Both the position numbers and the translations under genes were made by a program. The notes beneath the pieces are model-generated. The model was not told where the DNA came from, searched no databases, and saw nothing but the letters and a program-made list of their open reading frames with translations. A stretch of DNA of 37,186 bases from a virus: positions 1-37,186 of the IMG/VR virus record IMGVR_UViG_3300044837_000270. One strand, 5' to 3'. Below, in pieces: positions 6,780 through 20,979 of this stretch. The first letter of the stretch is position 1. Each line of letters begins with the position of its first letter.

Positions 6780-7024
6780 CTCGTCACCGCCTCGGAGGGC
6801 TCGGAGTAAAACCAGGCCACTTCACGGTCGAGTGCCTCGGCTAGCGCCATCAGATTTTCGGGGCGCGGCATCGACACGCCGCGCTCCCATCGGCTCACAG
6901 CCAGCGCGTCGACGCCATTTACCTTGGACGCGAGCTGGCGCTGGGTTAGTTCCTTGCCCGCTCGTGCGAGCTTGATGTTCCCGCCAACGATAGGCGCAAG
7001 GTCTTTAGCCACGGGACTAGTCAT
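6776..7024 (-). CDS. XRE-family Cro-like regulator, first gene of the early operon
   Basis: 82 aa from the ATG at 7024. A lambda-repressor-type HTH occupies about residues 15-70: IKLARAGKELTQRQLASKV with the T-Q-x-x-L-A helix 2, then LAVSRWERGVSMPRPENL as the recognition helix, then LMALAEALD. No dimerisation or protease domain follows, as expected for a Cro-type protein. A start 12 codons upstream is open but would lie across its own promoter. With the 7024 start the mRNA would be leaderless. Gene order (divergent from a larger XRE gene, head of the lytic operon) supports a Cro-like role by analogy. Confidence 0.8.
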   Translation of the reverse strand: MTSPVAKDLAPIVGGNIKLARAGKELTQRQLASKVNGVDALAVSRWERGVSMPRPENLMALAEALDREVAWFYSEPSEAVTR

Positions 7025-7053
7025 TTGCGATACCGTACTAAAGACTTTACGCC
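6993..7053. promoter_or_regulatory. 16-bp inverted repeat, candidate operators of the switch
   Basis: GGCGCAAGGTCTTTAG (6993-7008) and the reverse complement of 7038-7053 (GGCGTAAAGTCTTTAG) agree at 14 of 16 bases. A half-copy of the core, CTAAAGAC, recurs at 7079-7086, and a perfect GACTAGTC palindrome lies at 7015-7022. One arm fills the spacer of both promoters and the other lies inside the Cro-like coding start. This arrangement suits a repressor that loops or binds cooperatively. Confidence 0.55.
7025..7053 (+). promoter_or_regulatory. Rightward repressor promoter, face to face with the early promoter
   Basis: TTGCGA (7025-7030), 17 bp, TACGCC (7048-7053), then a 22-nt leader with AGAGG (7060-7064) before the ATG at 7076. 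The -35 of each promoter lies beyond the -10 of the other, so both cannot be occupied by polymerase at once. It matches consensus less well than the leftward promoter. Confidence 0.4.
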
Positions 7054-7060
7054 TAGTCAA
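7025..7060 (-). promoter_or_regulatory. Leftward early promoter, probably leaderless
   Basis: Read leftward, TTGACT (7060-7055), 17 bp, TACGGT (7037-7032), then 7 nt to the ATG at 7024. The -35 box is one base from consensus. Transcription would start at or within a base or two of the ATG, giving a leaderless message, which is common in actinobacteria. The 17-bp spacer is almost exactly one arm of the inverted repeat described separately. Confidence 0.6.
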
Positions 7061-7075
7061 GAGGCAATTAGGAAA

Positions 7076-7573
7076 ATGCTAAAGACAAAATCGTTAGACG
7101 CCCGTAGGTTCCAGCTCATGGCGGCCGAACACGTATTGCGGCGCGGGAAACGAGCGAAGAAACGCCGGGAGGAGCTGCAACTAACCCAGGAGGACGTAGC
7201 TGAGCGAATCCAGGAACTTCACGCCGAGCGCTTCCCAGACAAGGCGTCCGATAAGACGCGGGGGCAGATGATCTCCGATTACGAGCGCGGGATAAATGAC
7301 CCGCGCGGAGAGCGGCTGGAGCTCTGGGCTGCCGCCCTCGGTTGGATGACCGCTGATCTAGAAGCCGACTCTCCCCAGAAGAAGAACGGCGACCTCATGG
7401 ACGGGCTGAGCGAGGCGCAGGAGGGGGCGGAGCTGCCGCAACAAGTCGCAGATGCCCTCGATGCACATCGGGCTGAGGTGGGCGAGAAGCTAGACGCTCT
7501 GCATGGCGAGCTAGAAGCGATGAAGCGGCTTCTAACGTCATCGCGCCGTAAACGGAAAGGCACCGGCAGCTAG
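7076..7573 (+). CDS. XRE-family transcriptional repressor (CI-like)
   Basis: 165 aa from the ATG at 7076. The HTH region at about 25-95 reads KKRREELQLTQEDVAERIQ, then QMISDYERGINDPRGERLEL, then WAAALGW; the first loop is longer than usual (LHAERFPDKASDKTRG inserted). A helical C-terminal segment at 115-160 (VADALDAHRAEVGEKLDALH onward) is probably a dimerising coiled coil, ending in a basic tail RRKRKGTGS. There is no LexA/CI-like peptidase motif, so induction would not be by self-cleavage. It is the only rightward gene in the early region and diverges from the Cro-like gene. An upstream TTG in frame exists but would start inside the promoter. Confidence 0.75.
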   Translation: MLKTKSLDARRFQLMAAEHVLRRGKRAKKRREELQLTQEDVAERIQELHAERFPDKASDKTRGQMISDYERGINDPRGERLELWAAALGWMTADLEADSPQKKNGDLMDGLSEAQEGAELPQQVADALDAHRAEVGEKLDALHGELEAMKRLLTSSRRKRKGTGS

Positions 7574-8668: not shown

Positions 8669-9004
8669 ATGAGGATCAAGCTGCTCGCCTGCTCTACCGC
8701 AGTGTTCTTCGCGCTTACCACGTCCGCGAGCGCTGCCTATTTCATGAGCTACGGTCAAGCCAAGCACGCGACCAAGGAAACCGTCGAAACGGTCTGCTCA
8801 GAAGTAAGCAACTGCACCGGGTACGGCGTGGGCGGGTGTCGCCGCAACACGCAGAGCAACTTCTCCTGCGTCGGCGCTCTCTTTTACGAAGGTCTCTATC
8901 CGGGCGAAGAAGAAGAGTGCAACCGCGTCATTCGCTGGGGCGTCAATGGGCAAGGCTACATCGCGCTACGGGGTATTCAGCGAGCAGTCTGCTTCGCCGT
9001 CTAG
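8669..9004 (+). CDS. Secreted Cys-rich protein (host-type accessory gene)
   Basis: 111 aa with a clear start site (GAAGGAGGGGGAGATC before the ATG). Signal peptide: MRIK, hydrophobic core, cleavage predicted after SASA at about residue 22. The mature part has six Cys (43, 49, 57, 67, 84, 108), probably three disulfides, and opens AYFMSYGQAKHAT, then GYGVGGC, FSCVGALFY, CNRVIRWGVNGQGY. Small exported proteins with this AYxMSYGQA opening recur in Solirubrobacterales genomes; function is unknown. Its orientation is opposite to the flanking phage operons and it diverges from the ArsR-like regulator, which is the usual setting of a lysogenic-conversion gene. Confidence 0.8.
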   Translation: MRIKLLACSTAVFFALTTSASAAYFMSYGQAKHATKETVETVCSEVSNCTGYGVGGCRRNTQSNFSCVGALFYEGLYPGEEEECNRVIRWGVNGQGYIALRGIQRAVCFAV

Positions 9005-9749: not shown

Positions 9750-10625
9750 TCAACTCCAGTCCGGCCGCGCGACGATGCCGTGGTCGAAGTCGGAGATCGG
9801 CCGTTCCTTGTCGGCGACCTCGCCGCCGTTGGTCTGGCTGCCATCGGCGGCCGAGGTGTTGCCCTCGCGGGTCTTCACCATCGTGTCGCCGGGCTTCATG
9901 GCCTCGCGGACCGTGACCACGTGCTCGCCGCCCCAGAGGCAGCCGACGTCGCCGGGCTGCGCGTGGTGGACGGAGACCGCGGTGAAGCCGTTGGCACCGG
10001 CCAGGGCGTCGGCGGTGATGTAGGGGGCAAAGCCCATCCGGATTCGGTTCGGGATCTTCGCGCCGCCCAGGTGGACGACTATCCAGCAGGCGCAGCACCC
10101 GCACCAGAAGACACCGTTCCCCTCGGAGTCGGGGACCGCGTAGCCGGTGAACTTCTCCATCTCGCCGACCTTCGAGCCGTAGTTGGAGCCGGACGGTTCC
10201 TCGTGGACGCCGACCAGGCCAGCCGACTTCTCGATCGCCTTCTCGCCGGCGGACTTCGAGTAGCGCTTGCGGAGCTTCTGGCGGTAGTCGTCGCGGCGCT
10301 GGGCCGCCTTGACCTCGACCTCGGAGCGCCGGCGCCCGCGGATCAGCTCCTGGGTGCTCTCGGTGAGGATGCCCCGCTTCAGCTTCTCCTGTGCCTCGCC
10401 GCAAACGCCGTGGCTGACGGCGATCTCGGTCGCGGCGTTGAAGGTCTGGCCGCCGAGCTGCCCGTCCTTCTGGATCTCCCGGTCGATCTTCAGGTAGGCG
10501 AACTTCTCGTTGATCTCGCCCTGGAGCGCCCGGACGTCGGCGCCGCGCTCGATCGGCGAGGCGAGGCGGAGCGGACGGTGGACGGACTTGTCGGGGTCGA
10601 CCTTGTTCGAGTGCGGGTGGCCCAT
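9750..10625 (-). CDS. Endolysin: peptidoglycan-binding domain plus CHAP-type amidase
   Basis: 291 aa; AAAGGAGG precedes the ATG at 10625. Residues 20-75 (SPIERGADVRALQGEIN, DGQLGGQTFNAATE) read as a PGB_1-type peptidoglycan-binding domain. Residues about 124-285 read as a CHAP/NlpC-like hydrolase: GVHEEPSGSNYG, then FWCGCCACW with probable nucleophile Cys175, GDVGCLWGGEHV with His235, and REGNTS with Asn256 as the third polar residue. It has no signal peptide, so it needs the holin to reach the wall. It cleaves peptide bonds in peptidoglycan to release progeny. Small membrane-protein genes follow directly. Confidence 0.85.
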   Translation of the reverse strand: MGHPHSNKVDPDKSVHRPLRLASPIERGADVRALQGEINEKFAYLKIDREIQKDGQLGGQTFNAATEIAVSHGVCGEAQEKLKRGILTESTQELIRGRRRSEVEVKAAQRRDDYRQKLRKRYSKSAGEKAIEKSAGLVGVHEEPSGSNYGSKVGEMEKFTGYAVPDSEGNGVFWCGCCACWIVVHLGGAKIPNRIRMGFAPYITADALAGANGFTAVSVHHAQPGDVGCLWGGEHVVTVREAMKPGDTMVKTREGNTSAADGSQTNGGEVADKERPISDFDHGIVARPDWS

Positions 10626-16638: not shown

Positions 16639-17379
16639 CTAGCGAGCCTTTCTGGCCTTTGAGATCGCCTGCTTGGTCTGCTGCTTGCGCGGCGCCTTCT
16701 TCCCCGCGGGCGCCGCCTCAGCCTCCGGTTCGGCGCTTTCTGCCGCTGAGATCCGTTCCCATTCGGCTTCGCGTTCCTTTTCGGCCTTTTCTTCCGCGGC
16801 CTTGGTGCGGCCAGCGCTGATTTCTCCAAGCGCGTCTCGATAGGTTTTCGCCAACTGGTCCCGGTTGACCCCGTAGTCGGTCCGGTTGGCGCCGAGCCGG
16901 TTAGACGTTGAGCCGGAGTAGAGCTGGAGCCCGGCGGAGTTCGTAATCCCCCGGTTGCCCTTGAGATAGGTTTCCTCCAGCAGGGCAGCGCGGGAGTTCG
17001 GGTTGACCTTGTAGTCGTTGAAGCCGGGGTCGAGGCCGAACTCCTGTTTTGCATTCTGTTCTGCGAGGTCGAAGTTGCCCGAGGCGTCCAGGTAGCTTTT
17101 CTGCGCCCCCGCCACGATCTGATCGGCTTTCGAGTTCCACGGCGTCGGGGTGTAGGGCGTAGCCGCGGGCGGAGCGCCCCCTGCCGGAGCGGAGCGCTGG
17201 CTTTTCGCGTACTCAGTGTTCTTGGTCTGCCCTTTTGGGTTCCAGCGCCCTCCGAGCTGCTGGCGATCGAAGACGCCCTGTCCTGCCGAGCGCGGTGCCG
17301 TGGTCCCGCCGGTCTGCGGGGGCTTACGCGCCTTGATGGCGTTCGAGACGATCTGGCGGCGGTTTTGGTTTCGGGCCAT
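16639..17379 (-). CDS. Virion-associated protein, 246 aa
   Basis: Start at the ATG at 17379, which shares a base with the preceding TAA (TAATG); an in-frame ATG 6 codons earlier would overlap the previous gene by 19 bp. A Pro/Gly-rich N-terminal third is followed by a conserved-looking block (YLKGNRGITNSAGLQLYSGS, then VNRDQLAKTYRDALGEIS) also seen in virion proteins of other phages that lack a tape measure, then a basic/acidic tail ending QAISKARKAR. It is probably an internal or connector protein; the exact role is unknown. Confidence 0.65.
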   Translation of the reverse strand: MARNQNRRQIVSNAIKARKPPQTGGTTAPRSAGQGVFDRQQLGGRWNPKGQTKNTEYAKSQRSAPAGGAPPAATPYTPTPWNSKADQIVAGAQKSYLDASGNFDLAEQNAKQEFGLDPGFNDYKVNPNSRAALLEETYLKGNRGITNSAGLQLYSGSTSNRLGANRTDYGVNRDQLAKTYRDALGEISAGRTKAAEEKAEKEREAEWERISAAESAEPEAEAAPAGKKAPRKQQTKQAISKARKAR

Positions 17380-17789
17380 TAGCTGATTGCGATCCACGCG
17401 AACGAGTTATTGCCCGGTCCCGTCCCATTGGGCCAATAGGCGTTGACGTTGAAAATGGTCGTGGTCCACGAAATGACGTTGAAGATCCCGACGTGGGTTT
17501 CCGATTCCGAGGAGATCGCCGTGCAGAGAACGACGGTTGGCACGATCGCTTTGCCTTTGTCGTCTTTTAAGCCGTGGGAAACTTCCGTCACGTTGCTGAG
17601 ATGGGCGCCGGGGGTCCATCCGCAGACGCTGACCCCGAATGCGACCTTGTGGCTCCCCGCAGTGACGAGCTGGGGGAACAGTTCCTTCACTGACTCGGCG
17701 ACGTCCTGAGATTGAATCGGGAACTGCTTTTCCAAGGTGCGGAAGTTCTGATCTGAGGCGGCGTCTTTGACGGGCTGAAGACGAGGCAT
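17379..17789 (-). CDS. Tail-fibre-like or tail-tip protein, 136 aa
   Basis: CAAGGAGCG precedes the ATG at 17789. The opening MPRLQPVKDAASDQNFRTLE and the aromatic, beta-rich C-terminus (IFNVNAYWPNGTGPGNNSFA, then WIAIS) are typical of small trimeric fibre-tip proteins of actinophages. Its first codons overlap the putative promoter of the opposite-strand cassette. Confidence 0.6.
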   Translation of the reverse strand: MPRLQPVKDAASDQNFRTLEKQFPIQSQDVAESVKELFPQLVTAGSHKVAFGVSVCGWTPGAHLSNVTEVSHGLKDDKGKAIVPTVVLCTAISSESETHVGIFNVISWTTTIFNVNAYWPNGTGPGNNSFAWIAIS

Positions 17790-17795
17790 TACGCT
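17767..17795 (+). promoter_or_regulatory. Putative leaderless promoter of the opposite-strand cassette
   Basis: TTGACG (17767-17772), 17 bp, TACGCT (17790-17795), then 7 nt to the GTG at 17803. Hexamers, spacing and distance to the start codon are the same as for the leftward early promoter at 7060-7032. No ribosome site is present before the GTG, which fits a leaderless message. Confidence 0.5.
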
Positions 17796-17802
17796 CCTTG
17801 AC

Positions 17803-17961
17803 GTGACGGTCTGGCAGTGGATTGGGTGGGTCTTCGGAGGGGCATGGCTGCTCTTCTGCGCCTTTTATCTCCTCGTCATAGTGCTGGCTGCCCTGGTGTA
17901 TTTGGGCAAAGGCGCTGAGCGAGTTTTCGCGCTACTAACGCGACTGTTACCCGGGCTATGA
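17803..17961 (+). CDS. Two-TM membrane protein coupled to the hydrolase gene, 52 aa
   Basis: GTG start; the TGA at 17959-17961 overlaps the hydrolase ATG (ATGA). The product is Trp/Leu-rich with a long hydrophobic stretch (about residues 4-34: WQWIGWVFGGAWLLFCAFYL onward) and a basic amphipathic C-terminus (GKGAERVFALLTRLLPGL). It could span the membrane once or as a tight hairpin. No family is recognised. As the promoter-proximal partner of a secreted hydrolase, it may be a holin-like, immunity or anchoring protein; that is inference. Confidence 0.65.
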   Translation: MTVWQWIGWVFGGAWLLFCAFYLLVIVLAALVYLGKGAERVFALLTRLLPGL

Positions 17962-18674
17962 AGCGGAGCCTCCTACTCGCTGCGGTTCTACTGGCGCTGG
18001 CGGCTTCGGAGGCACGCGCCAGCTACTTAACGGTTGGCGGTCAACATGCGCAGTTCCTTCGCCCTCACCGTCCGACCAATCGTCTGGTGATCTACGTCCA
18101 CGGGGCTGGCGGCACCGCGGAAACGATTACGGCCGACGCCGCGCATCTCAGTCTGACCAACGCTTTGCTCGGTCATGGTTTCGCGGTGGCGGCGAGCGAT
18201 GCTCACGGAATGCAGAATTGGGGCGACCCGGCGAGCGTCATCGACTACGTCCACTTGGCGCATCGTCTCCCCTCCACCCGGATCTACATTTTGGCCGAGT
18301 CGATGGGTGCCCTCGACGGCGTGCAGCTCATCGACCGCCTGCACCCGAAAGCGTGGGGTGGCATCTACCCGGTTTGCAACGTGGCCTCCCTCAAGAGTGA
18401 GGTCCTCATCAACCAAATCTACGAAACCTGGGACGGCCCGGCTCCTGCGAGGCTGAGCCCGGTGACTGCCTCCAACGTGGAGGGGCTCCCGGTCCTAATG
18501 TGGGCATCTCCGGGAGACCACTTCGTGCCGAAAGCCCAAAATGCCGACACCTGTGCCAGGCGGATGAAGAAGGGCGGCGCGAATGTCGATGAGATCAGCA
18601 CGACGGGCGACCACGGCGATCTCTCCAACTTCCAACCCGCCCGCCTCCTGCACTTCTTTCTCTCGGCTCAATAG
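17958..18674 (+). CDS. Secreted alpha/beta hydrolase (esterase/lipase-like)
   Basis: 238 aa. Signal peptide at residues 1-22 (MKRSLLLAAVLLALAASEAR-A, cleavage near SY). The oxyanion turn HGAGG lies at 48-52, the nucleophile elbow A-E-S-M-G with Ser115, the acid GDHFVP with Asp187, and the catalytic GDHGDL with His219. That is a complete catalytic triad in the order Ser-Asp-His. Mature length and layout suit an esterase or peptidase/acyl-hydrolase. Mycobacteriophage LysB is also an alpha/beta hydrolase, but it is not normally signal-bearing and its substrate (mycolic ester) is not expected in Thermoleophilia. It lies against the direction of the surrounding tail genes and converges with the next one (7-bp overlap of stops). 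Confidence 0.85.
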   Translation: MKRSLLLAAVLLALAASEARASYLTVGGQHAQFLRPHRPTNRLVIYVHGAGGTAETITADAAHLSLTNALLGHGFAVAASDAHGMQNWGDPASVIDYVHLAHRLPSTRIYILAESMGALDGVQLIDRLHPKAWGGIYPVCNVASLKSEVLINQIYETWDGPAPARLSPVTASNVEGLPVLMWASPGDHFVPKAQNADTCARRMKKGGANVDEISTTGDHGDLSNFQPARLLHFFLSAQ

Positions 18675-19396
18675 CCGTGAACCTCAACCCAGAGTTTTCG
18701 TTCCTTGGCGGTAATAGAGCCTCCGGCGATGCTGGCCCATTGCACTGAAACGGTGTAGGTACCAGGCGCCACAAAGATTTCTACCGCTCCACCAAGGCCG
18801 GGAGCAGCCCCCGCTACGCTGGCCGAAAACGTGTAGGGGTTTGCTCCTAGGGAGTATGCGAGGCTGCTTTCCGATGCGGAGTGCGCGCCTATAACTTGGC
18901 CCGTAGTAACCGTTGAAGCGCCACCCGAGGCAGAGGTTGCCGAGACAAGGCCGATGGGGCAACTTACGACTGGCACCCATCGGCTCCCTGATGCTTCAAA
19001 AAGGAGTGCGGCCTGGGTCTCGGGGGCGACGATCGGACCGCCAAGCTTTAGTTGGTTGGAGCCGATGAAGAGGGCAGCGCTGCCCCCTTTGGCCGCTTTC
19101 GCGAGTGCGTAGAAGGAGACGAGCAGTTTCCCGTTTTCGGGCACAACAACGCCGGTAATTTCGTCTTTCGTCGCGAGGGTTCCAAGGGCAGTGTTTTCTC
19201 TCGTCTCTTCGGTGTTGATGACTTTGGGCGTGTACCCGGTGACGGGCTTGAGAGCGGCAACAATGTTGGCGGCCGTGACCGGAAATTTACCTTCCAGCGC
19301 TTCGCCCGCTTCTTTCAGCGCTTTGTCGTTGCCGTAGACGTCCGACCAGTTGGCTTTGCCTTTGTTGGTTTCCCCTTTGGGGAGGGAGATGCTCAT
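18668..19396 (-). CDS. Tail-fibre / receptor-binding protein candidate, 242 aa
   Basis: Start at the ATG at 19396 coupled to the upstream stop (ATGA); a longer frame upstream lies under that gene. The N-terminal part (SISLPKGETNKGKANWSDVY, ALKEAGEALEGKF) looks like a virion-anchoring region. Residues 85 to the end are beta-rich and Gly/Ser/Ala/Thr-rich (LFIGSNQLKLGG, then GTYTVSVQWASIAGGSIT). It has no catalytic motif. Location after the tail hub supports a fibre role. Confidence 0.6.
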   Translation of the reverse strand: MSISLPKGETNKGKANWSDVYGNDKALKEAGEALEGKFPVTAANIVAALKPVTGYTPKVINTEETRENTALGTLATKDEITGVVVPENGKLLVSFYALAKAAKGGSAALFIGSNQLKLGGPIVAPETQAALLFEASGSRWVPVVSCPIGLVSATSASGGASTVTTGQVIGAHSASESSLAYSLGANPYTFSASVAGAAPGLGGAVEIFVAPGTYTVSVQWASIAGGSITAKERKLWVEVHGY

Positions 19397-20979
19397 GCAT
19401 TCACCGTGCTTGGCTTGTCGATCTCTCTGAGGTGATGCGTTGAGCGATGCATGGACCACTCCTGATCAAGGGTTGAGTTCGTGAAATAGAGGGAGAAGGT
19501 GGTTCCGAGGACGGCCGTCATCCGGGATTTCTGCACAAGCCCGCGCGTTTCGGCCCATTCAAATTCGCCCCATTCCGGACTCCCCCATTCGGGGGCAGTC
19601 GGATCAGAGAAGTCGAGTGGTGCCAGCGTGCCGGGGTCCTGGCGGAAGTCACAACCGGTCGCCTGCTGGACTTTGCCTGACCCCCAGAACTTGGCCGAGC
19701 CGAGCACCTTCGCGTCGGGATTGGCAAAGTCAAACCAGCCCGAGCGCCAGCGCGATTCGATCGCGGCCCCGTCGTCGTTCGTGTAGGTCGAAGAATGGCG
19801 GCCGATGTGGTTTGAGCCCGAGGCATAGCCGAAGACCAGCTCCTCGGCGCTGGAGGGGCGAAAGGTCGCCAAGCAGGACGCCTGGATGTTGTAGAGGCTC
19901 CACCACTCAAAGCGCGGGTCGTAGACGAGGACGCGGCTGTTGGCCGATTCGCTGGGAAAGGCGAAGTAGACCCGGTCTTCCCAGGCTCCCATCGCGCAGT
20001 TGGTGATCGACCCGGTCGCGAGCGTGCCGCCAAGGTAGAATGGGGAAACGTCAGCCGACCAGATTGGCTCGACCAGCGAGGAGATCAGTTCGGGCTCCTG
20101 CCCCGTCGTCCGGTAGACCCCGTTTCGCGACATGAAGTAGACGCCGGAGGGGTGGATGCAGACTGCCCGCGGCGCTGCGAGTCCTACGCCCGCCTCGACC
20201 GGCCGGAAGACGAATTCAGGCGAACCTTCCGTGTCGACCCCTTGGTGGGTGAAGACGAAGAACGAGGTTTCCTTGAAGACGAAGACAAAATCCTTCCAGG
20301 TGATTGCTGCTTGGATCGGCTCTCCGTTGCCGGGCATGAGCTGGACCGTGTTTTCTTCGGTCCCGGTCGTATGCCAGGACTCGGGGTCGCCGGGATCGGA
20401 GAACCAGACGTGATCGGGTGAACTCGTTGCTGCGTTGGGGCCGCCGGTCGTGGTCGAGAAGCGGGTCGCGATCAGCCGGTTCCCGGCTGCCGGCCAGACG
20501 CAGAGCGAGCCCGCCTTGGGCATCGCTTTTTCAGCCACACCGTCCACCGTCGCTTTAGGGGCGGTCCATTCGGCCCCGTTCCACTTGCGCAGCGTGTCGG
20601 TGCCGTTGCCCGCATAGGCGACCTCGCCGTTGGGTTTGCCAAACCGCGTGAAGTCCCAGACGGCGTTGGTCAGGCCGGTAGCCGAGGCTTTGACGCCACC
20701 ACCGGCTTCAACGGCCTCCAGGCGCGTTCCGCATCCGGCCAGGAGCTGCTTCGTCCCGGAGGAGGTGTAGAAGGCTTCGAGGCTCGCTGGTCGGTTGGTC
20801 AGCGCCGAGCTGGTCAGATTGTCGTAGCCGGGGCGCTGGGTGATGGCGCCCCGGTCGGTGAAGAGGACGTTTAAGGCGTCGATGCACTGCGCAGGGTCGA
20901 CCGAGTCGCTCTTGTCCCGGAGATTGAGGCCCCCTCCGAATCCTTCGTGGGGGAAACTGGTTTCGCCGCGAACACTCAT
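19393..20979 (-). CDS. Tail hub / DNA-stabilisation protein, P22 gp10-like
   Basis: 528 aa, beta-rich. It opens GETSFPHEGFGGGLNLRDKS, then PAQCIDALNVLFTDRGAITQRPGYDNL, the characteristic opening of podoviral gp10-like plug proteins. Repeated W-x-x-x-F/Y blades follow (WNGAEWTAPKATVDG, HVWFSDPGDPESWHTTGTEE, WKDFVFVFKETSFFVFT, VYFAFPSESANSRVLVYDPR), consistent with a beta-propeller. In P22, gp10 sits at the tail base and keeps packaged DNA in. The start shares a base with the previous TGA (TGATG). Confidence 0.75.
   Translation of the reverse strand: MSVRGETSFPHEGFGGGLNLRDKSDSVDPAQCIDALNVLFTDRGAITQRPGYDNLTSSALTNRPASLEAFYTSSGTKQLLAGCGTRLEAVEAGGGVKASATGLTNAVWDFTRFGKPNGEVAYAGNGTDTLRKWNGAEWTAPKATVDGVAEKAMPKAGSLCVWPAAGNRLIATRFSTTTGGPNAATSSPDHVWFSDPGDPESWHTTGTEENTVQLMPGNGEPIQAAITWKDFVFVFKETSFFVFTHQGVDTEGSPEFVFRPVEAGVGLAAPRAVCIHPSGVYFMSRNGVYRTTGQEPELISSLVEPIWSADVSPFYLGGTLATGSITNCAMGAWEDRVYFAFPSESANSRVLVYDPRFEWWSLYNIQASCLATFRPSSAEELVFGYASGSNHIGRHSSTYTNDDGAAIESRWRSGWFDFANPDAKVLGSAKFWGSGKVQQATGCDFRQDPGTLAPLDFSDPTAPEWGSPEWGEFEWAETRGLVQKSRMTAVLGTTFSLYFTNSTLDQEWSMHRSTHHLREIDKPSTVNA

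What the first reader, a model, noticed from the sequence alone, without database searches (positions are those of the whole stretch)
17767..18674. Against-the-grain cassette in the tail genes: membrane protein plus secreted alpha/beta hydrolase with its own leaderless promoter
Every gene from 9.07 to 37 kb runs leftward except this coupled pair. The hydrolase has a complete Ser115/Asp187/His219 triad and a signal peptide, which a virion or holin-released enzyme would not need. The 52-aa membrane protein ends in ATGA overlap with it. The upstream TTGACG-17-TACGCT-7-GTG matches the geometry of the early promoter of the switch. Together this suggests an independently expressed two-gene unit, active in lysogens or early infection, that exports an esterase to alter the host surface (for example blocking superinfection) or to feed a two-component lysis or toxicity system. 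I know of no described phage module with this pairing.
Basis: partly seen in the sequence, partly recalled or inferred. Interest (0 to 1): 0.75.

Follow-up and report, generated by a model that had tools for sequence, protein, structure and literature searches.

The report
Phage cassette exporting a surface esterase
Inside its tail genes this soil phage carries a backwards-facing slot with its own promoter that makes a protein for export (here an esterase-like enzyme), and related and unrelated phages fill similar slots with other exported enzymes, probably to alter the surface of the cell they occupy and keep rival phages out.

Summary
In detail: 17803-17961 and 17958-18674 are the only rightward genes between 9.07 and 37 kb. 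The hydrolase has a Sec signal peptide, an invariant Ser115/Asp187/His219 triad, and a promoter-like TTGACG-17-TACGCT-7-GTG. In the whole window that pattern occurs only here and before cro.

The slot is conserved, the cargo is not. Eleven related phage contigs (window included) carry an opposite-strand gene at this place. All eleven encode predicted signal peptides (background 13 of 803), but cargoes differ: alpha/beta hydrolase here, HExxH metalloproteases or small secreted proteins elsewhere. The window's signal peptide is homologous to a relative's, ending exactly at the cleavage site; the mature enzymes are unrelated.

The nearest homologue, Arthrobacter phage Seahorse gp34, is an against-the-grain lipoprotein next to a tail protein bearing the same hydrolase fold. 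In 11 of 11 sampled phages of Arthrobacter, Microbacterium and Gordonia, an exported or anchored esterase converges on a tail gene carrying the same esterase fold.

Best reading: an independently expressed exported-effector ("moron") cassette whose esterase deacylates the host surface, probably for superinfection exclusion. Export and independent expression are well supported; substrate and exclusion are inferred. New variant of a known kind. The lysis/toxicity idea finds no support.

The parts
17767..17795 (+). promoter-like site TTGACG-N17-TACGCT, 7 nt before GTG (leaderless geometry)
   Evidence: only two such patterns in the window, the other before cro; 0.05 expected. TANNNT 6-10 nt before the start recurs in relatives' cassettes; L039 has TTGACG-17-TAGCCT-9-GTG.
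17803..17961 (+). 52-aa predicted single-pass membrane protein, GTG start, ATGA overlap with the next gene
   Evidence: weak coding score (+2.6). Small membrane ORFs sit in the same position in L009, L015 and L039, but similarity is not significant.
17958..18674 (+). 238-aa secreted alpha/beta hydrolase (esterase-like)
   Evidence: About 35-36% identity to Seahorse gp34, 4e-28; Pfam Hydrolase_4 only sub-threshold; Seahorse gp34 hits Abhydrolase_1 above cut-off.
17958..18020 (+). Sec signal peptide MKRSLLLAAVLLALAASEARA
   Evidence: 17/21 residues and about 73% of 63 nt shared with the L012 protease cassette; the DNA match ends at the cleavage site.
18300..18302 (+). catalytic Ser115 (AESMGA)
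   Evidence: Invariant.
18516..18518 (+). catalytic Asp187
   Evidence: Invariant.
18612..18614 (+). catalytic His219
   Evidence: Invariant.
18668..19396 (-). convergent leftward tail-fibre-like gene, overlapping the hydrolase by 7 nt at the stops; conserved N-terminus, variable C-terminus
17379..17789 (-). divergent leftward tail gene; its Shine-Dalgarno overlaps the cassette -10
19393..20979 (-). conserved head/tail connector-type protein used as the left anchor of the slot
   Evidence: phrog_3287 1.2e-27; 44 related loci.
16639..17397 (-). conserved tail-region gene used as the right anchor of the slot

Best explanation
The pair is the current occupant of an exported-effector slot (a moron-type cassette) in the tail-fibre region of a temperate actinobacterial-type phage lineage. 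The slot is transcribed against the late operon from its own leaderless promoter, so it is expressed outside the late programme, most likely in the lysogen or early in infection. Its product, a Sec-exported alpha/beta hydrolase, acts on acyl esters of the host's own cell surface. The most likely benefit is removing or altering the acylated glycan that tail fibres of this or rival phages recognise, that is, superinfection exclusion by receptor deacylation. SHOWN by sequence: orientation, signal peptide, triad, promoter geometry, conservation of slot, strand and export with cargo exchange. INFERRED: expression in lysogens, esterase chemistry on surface glycans, exclusion.
For: Eleven contigs have an opposite-strand gene at this slot, all with predicted signal peptides, versus 13/803 other genes (Fisher 1e-18). 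Cargo is swapped behind a homologous signal peptide. Promoter. Temperate group: HTH_3 Cro/repressor in the window and integrases in 7 of 15 relatives. The nearest homologue, Seahorse gp34, is an against-the-grain lipoprotein beside the integrase region. In 11/11 sampled actinophages the exported or anchored esterase converges on a tail gene with the same esterase fold: Seahorse alpha/beta with alpha/beta, ten others SGNH with SGNH. Seahorse shares its lipoprotein leader with the SGNH lipoproteins of TripleJ and BrayBeast. Kukla has an Acyl_transf_3 gene next to the exported esterase, and Faja has one in the convergent group beside its tail-operon esterase. Tail SGNH esterases act on receptors in Klebsiella and coliphages (PMC13123978).
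Against: No virion esterase was found in the window phage itself, so the same-fold pairing cannot be shown here. Cargo in relatives is often a protease or small Cys-containing protein, so deacylation is not the slot's general activity. No integrase was found in the window; the record may be incomplete. The promoter is only 8/12 to consensus and overlaps another gene's Shine-Dalgarno. Same-fold concordance rests on one independent fold switch (Seahorse); the ten SGNH cases share one exported family, and tail partners were not sampled at random. No structure: the single-sequence model failed (pLDDT 33).
Confidence: 0.5

Rival explanations
1. Lysogenic conversion for the host's benefit: the slot carries assorted secreted host-type enzymes (hydrolases, proteases, small Cys-containing proteins) that help the lysogen feed, compete or survive in soil, with no role in phage exclusion.
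For: Diverse cargo, several with metalloprotease motifs. The window carries a second, unrelated secreted rightward gene at 8669-9004.
Against: Cassettes sit in the tail-fibre region, and in actinophages the enzyme class matches the neighbouring tail esterase in 11/11. Acyltransferases occur in the same region.
Confidence: 0.28
2. A virion-associated tail esterase gene that was inverted or horizontally captured; the enzyme acts during entry, and the signal peptide is incidental.
For: The family includes tail-fibre domains and tail-operon genes without signal peptide: Seahorse gp33, ArV2 gp24, Faja gp32, CheeseTouch gp32.
Against: Clean signal peptide, own promoter, opposite strand, grouping with exported Seahorse gp34 (95/95), and unrelated exported proteins at the same site in relatives.
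Confidence: 0.07
3. Accessory lysis enzyme (LysB-like or holin-coupled): the 52-aa membrane protein and exported hydrolase help disrupt the envelope late in infection.
For: Small membrane protein coupled to a cell-envelope-directed hydrolase; LysB is also an alpha/beta hydrolase (general knowledge).
Against: Lysis-type genes are leftward at 9.4-10.9 kb (endolysin-like 9750-10625, phrog_21825). LysB-type enzymes lack signal peptides (general knowledge). Relatives replace the hydrolase with proteases or other secreted proteins in the same slot.
Confidence: 0.05
4. Early host-takeover factor: exported early in lytic infection (same promoter geometry as cro) to block secondary infection, not expressed in stable lysogens.
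For: The promoter matches the early cro promoter exactly in geometry.
Against: No evidence separates it from lysogenic expression; repressor control of the site is untested.
Confidence: 0.1

Closest known systems
Seahorse gp34 and the exported SGNH esterases of TripleJ, BrayBeast, Kukla, Judy, Hestia, Footloose, Squiddly, Belphegor, Clown and Matteo (annotated only as esterase, lipase, hydrolase, minor tail protein or hypothetical protein)
   Same: Exported or membrane-anchored esterase, transcribed against and converging on tail genes; Seahorse gp34 is the nearest homologue of the window protein.
   Different: There the partner tail gene carries the same esterase fold, and most lie by the integrase; the window lacks a detected tail esterase, and its enzyme has a cleavable signal peptide rather than a lipobox or anchor.
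Ltp-type superinfection-exclusion lipoproteins (Streptococcus phage TP-J34, PMC3952083)
   Same: Prophage-encoded, exported protein at the host surface.
   Different: Ltp lies in the lysogeny module and is not known as a hydrolase; the window protein is an enzyme-type protein in the tail region.
O-antigen acetylating or glucosylating seroconversion genes (Oac of Sf6, gtrABC of P22; general knowledge)
   Same: Prophage changes host surface acylation or glycans to alter phage receptors.
   Different: Those add groups; an exported esterase would remove them.
Tail SGNH deacetylases (G7C gp63.1; Klebsiella prophage RBPs, PMC13123978)
   Same: Phage esterase acting on surface glycans.
   Different: Virion components expressed late, not exported by the infected cell; different fold from the window hydrolase.
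Lambda lom and bor morons (general knowledge)
   Same: Independently expressed exported proteins embedded in late-gene regions.
   Different: Unrelated proteins; not known as an exchangeable slot with cargo swapped behind a conserved signal peptide.

Membership tests
Moron / lysogenic-conversion gene | extra gene among late genes with its own promoter | tested here: met
   sequence evidence only.
Moron / lysogenic-conversion gene | present in some relatives, absent or replaced in others | tested here: met
   absent in L011, L030, L036 and others; replaced by other cargo in ten.
Moron / lysogenic-conversion gene | expressed from the prophage | not testable with these tools
   Needs RNA data.
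alpha/beta hydrolase superfamily | nucleophile-acid-His triad in order with HG oxyanion motif | tested here: met
   S115, D187, H219 and the HG motif conserved; the window protein itself scores below Pfam cut-offs, Seahorse gp34 above them.
alpha/beta hydrolase superfamily | fold confirmed by structure | tested here: inconclusive
   Single-sequence model pLDDT 33.
Superinfection-exclusion surface protein (Ltp-like) | carries an export signal | tested here: met
   Signal peptide in the window and in all ten relatives' cassettes; export itself not measured.
Superinfection-exclusion surface protein (Ltp-like) | blocks adsorption or DNA entry | not testable with these tools
   Needs plating and adsorption assays.
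LysB mycolylarabinogalactan esterase | in the lysis cassette, no signal peptide | tested here: not met
   Against the grain, signal peptide present, lysis genes elsewhere.

The most novel reading that the evidence does not exclude
Temperate phages of actinobacteria carry a matched enzyme pair: an esterase on the tail that processes the acylated receptor during entry, and an independently expressed, cell-surface esterase of the same fold that strips that receptor from the lysogen. It would be a dedicated lock-behind-you exclusion system, evolving by swapping enzyme domains behind conserved export signals at a fixed antisense slot beside the tail-fibre genes.
Probability: 0.4. Interest if true: 0.78.

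Novelty: new variant of a known kind. Interest (0 to 1): 0.62.

Why it matters
It turns scattered 'esterase', 'lipase' and 'minor tail protein' annotations in dozens of actinophages into one testable hypothesis: temperate phages export enzymes that rewrite surface acylation and so control who can infect the lysogen. It gives a positional rule (antisense gene beside the tail-fibre genes, signal peptide, TANNNT just before the start) for finding exported phage effectors of unknown kinds in uncultured phages, and it identifies cultured models (Arthrobacter globiformis phages) where it can be tested at once.

Tried and rejected
Host identification through prophages in 84,980 species genomes with the capsid and connector proteins: none. 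PDB sequence search: only DARPin/ankyrin repeat proteins over a short stretch, E 0.013 or worse, judged spurious. Structure prediction without homologues: useless, so no fold search was run; homologues from the annotated-phage collection may not be submitted, so it was not repeated. NCBIfam: no family for the window protein. Homology of the 52-aa membrane protein to the small membrane ORFs of L009, L015 and L039: not significant (22 to 331 of 500 shuffles as good). Strict sigma-70 scan: nothing. Recent duplication of the tail esterase into the exported one: rejected for the SGNH cases, since exported SGNH enzymes resemble each other far more than their tail partners. Serine integrase in the window group: none. 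Literature search for an exported phage esterase in exclusion: nothing found in the open-access library.

Full report
The observation. A codon-usage gene caller trained on this phage group leaves the hydrolase as the only rightward gene from 9.07 to 37 kb, with strong coding signal and GC3 like the neighbouring phage genes. The 52-aa ORF has only weak coding signal and no Shine-Dalgarno site. The hydrolase has a textbook Sec signal peptide and Ser115, Asp187 and His219 in positions conserved among homologues. It overlaps by 7 nt the end of the convergent tail-fibre-like gene.

The promoter. TTGACG-17-TACGCT-7-GTG is present. Searching the window on both strands for TTGACN-N16-18-TANNNT-N5-9-(A/G)TG gives exactly two sites: this one and TTGACT-17-TACGGT-7-ATG in front of cro at 7024 (-). 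A first-order Markov simulation of the window gives 0.05. The site is only 8/12 to the sigma-70 consensus, and its -10 coincides with the reverse complement of the Shine-Dalgarno region of the divergent gene. Relatives favour a real signal. Seven of eleven cassettes, or six of ten excluding the window, have TANNNT 6-10 nt before the first start codon, against 8 of 190 comparable opposite-strand starts and 0.8% of all ATG/GTG (binomial 1e-6). L039 even has TTGACG-17-TAGCCT-9-GTG. Such geometry is typical of leaderless genes: in Mycobacterium smegmatis 24% of transcripts are leaderless and TANNNT is the preferred -10 (PMC6448022).

The slot in relatives. Capsid and connector proteins of the window find a family of soil phage contigs in IMG/VR. 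The head-tail genes are syntenic, but the stretch between the connector protein and the 252-aa tail gene is hypervariable. In ten of these contigs (L009, L010, L012, L013, L015, L026, L031, L039, L071, L072) it holds one or two genes on the opposite strand, as in the window; others (for example L011, L030, L036) have none. By a simple heuristic, all eleven cassettes encode a signal peptide, against 13 of 803 other genes; one of those 13 is the window's own second secreted gene at 8669-9004. Cargo differs: alpha/beta hydrolase in the window; a matrixin-like protease with HEYGHMLGLGHD in L009; a second protease type with HE(I/V/L)GH in L010, L012 and L072; small secreted, often Cys-containing proteins in the rest. 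A small membrane ORF precedes the exported gene in L009, L015 and L039 as well, but these ORFs are not significantly similar.

Cargo exchange. The window's signal peptide shares 17 of 21 residues and about 73% of 63 nt with that of L012, starting at the ATG and ending at the cleavage site, while the mature proteins are unrelated. This points to recombination between export signal and enzyme.

The actinophage parallel. The best database match of the hydrolase is Arthrobacter phage Seahorse gp34 (35%, 4e-28). It carries a lipobox (LSGC), is transcribed against the tail genes, and converges on gp33, a tail-operon protein whose C-terminus is itself a homologous hydrolase. In a six-sequence tree the window and gp34 form a supported pair apart from tail-borne members (95/95). 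TripleJ gp32 and BrayBeast gp27 share gp34's lipoprotein leader but carry SGNH hydrolase bodies. Following these, I found the same layout in Kukla, Judy, Hestia, Footloose, Squiddly, Belphegor, Clown and Matteo: an exported or membrane-anchored SGNH esterase converging on a tail gene that has an SGNH domain. Folds match in 11 of 11. The SGNH match is not from recent duplication, since exported enzymes are closer to each other than to their tail partners. It includes only one independent fold switch (Seahorse), so its weight is moderate. An Acyl_transf_3 enzyme lies next to the exported esterase in Kukla, and in Faja one lies in the convergent group beside the tail-operon esterase gp32; this is the enzyme type known to acylate surface glycans. 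Six of ten such exported genes have TAGAAT upstream, in Judy and Hestia 7 nt before ATG.

Mechanism. Shown at sequence level: an enzyme-type protein with an export signal, preceded by a promoter-like site of its own, at a site that in relatives also carries export signals. Inferred: it acts outside the cell on acyl esters of the host surface; tail esterases of the SGNH kind deacetylate receptors elsewhere (PMC13123978). Inferred with less certainty: the benefit is superinfection exclusion, as with other prophage surface proteins such as Ltp (PMC3952083). The main rival is a host-benefit secreted enzyme; the protease and small-protein cargo of the relatives keeps that open. Lysis and virion roles are unlikely.

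Lifestyle and host. The window has a Cro/repressor pair (HTH_3) but no integrase; 7 of 15 relatives have a tyrosine integrase, so the group is temperate. Terminase matches to Arthrobacter and Cellulosimicrobium phages and leaderless promoters suggest an actinobacterial host, but this is not proven, and no prophage was found.

Verdict. It is a new variant of the moron / superinfection-exclusion kind; the enzyme's substrate and effect remain to be shown.

Noticed in passing
window 8669-9004 (+): A second rightward gene with a signal peptide (111 aa, MRIKLLACSTAVFFALTTSASA), between lysis-type genes and the repressor region, with a good Shine-Dalgarno; another likely exported accessory protein.
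   Followed up: partly
window 7022-7100: Switch region: cro promoter TTGACT-17-TACGGT-7-ATG (-), divergent repressor 7076-7573 (+).
   Followed up: partly
L009 15043-15594; L010 14948-15553; L012 15547-16059; L072 6936-7532 (all -): Phage-encoded secreted HExxH metalloproteases of two types in the same slot; all four occur with the AGTLE-type rather than the window-type neighbouring tail gene.
   Followed up: partly
L078 4453-5151 (BrayBeast gp27); L081 4210-5112 (Squiddly gp36); L085 3483-4250 (Clown gp41): Annotation problems: BrayBeast gp27 start is about 300 nt too late and hides a lipobox; Squiddly gp36 is called minor tail protein though antisense and membrane-anchored; the RefSeq copy of Clown gp41 is called head decoration.
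   Followed up: yes
L080 3181-4335 (Kukla gp31); L003 12943-14028 (Faja gp34): OafA/Oac-like Acyl_transf_3 genes: in Kukla directly upstream of the exported esterase, in Faja near the tail-operon esterase gp32 (with a Wzy_C-like gene beside it).
   Followed up: partly
L083 4154-4354 (Judy gp32) and Hestia gp33: 66-aa membrane protein overlapping the end of the exported esterase, a pairing like the window's but in reverse order, in a large group of Arthrobacter phages.
   Followed up: no
L026 12625-12739 and L071 7501-7581: Shared leader with a CCCCGG...CCGGGG hairpin before the Shine-Dalgarno of two secreted cargo genes.
   Followed up: no
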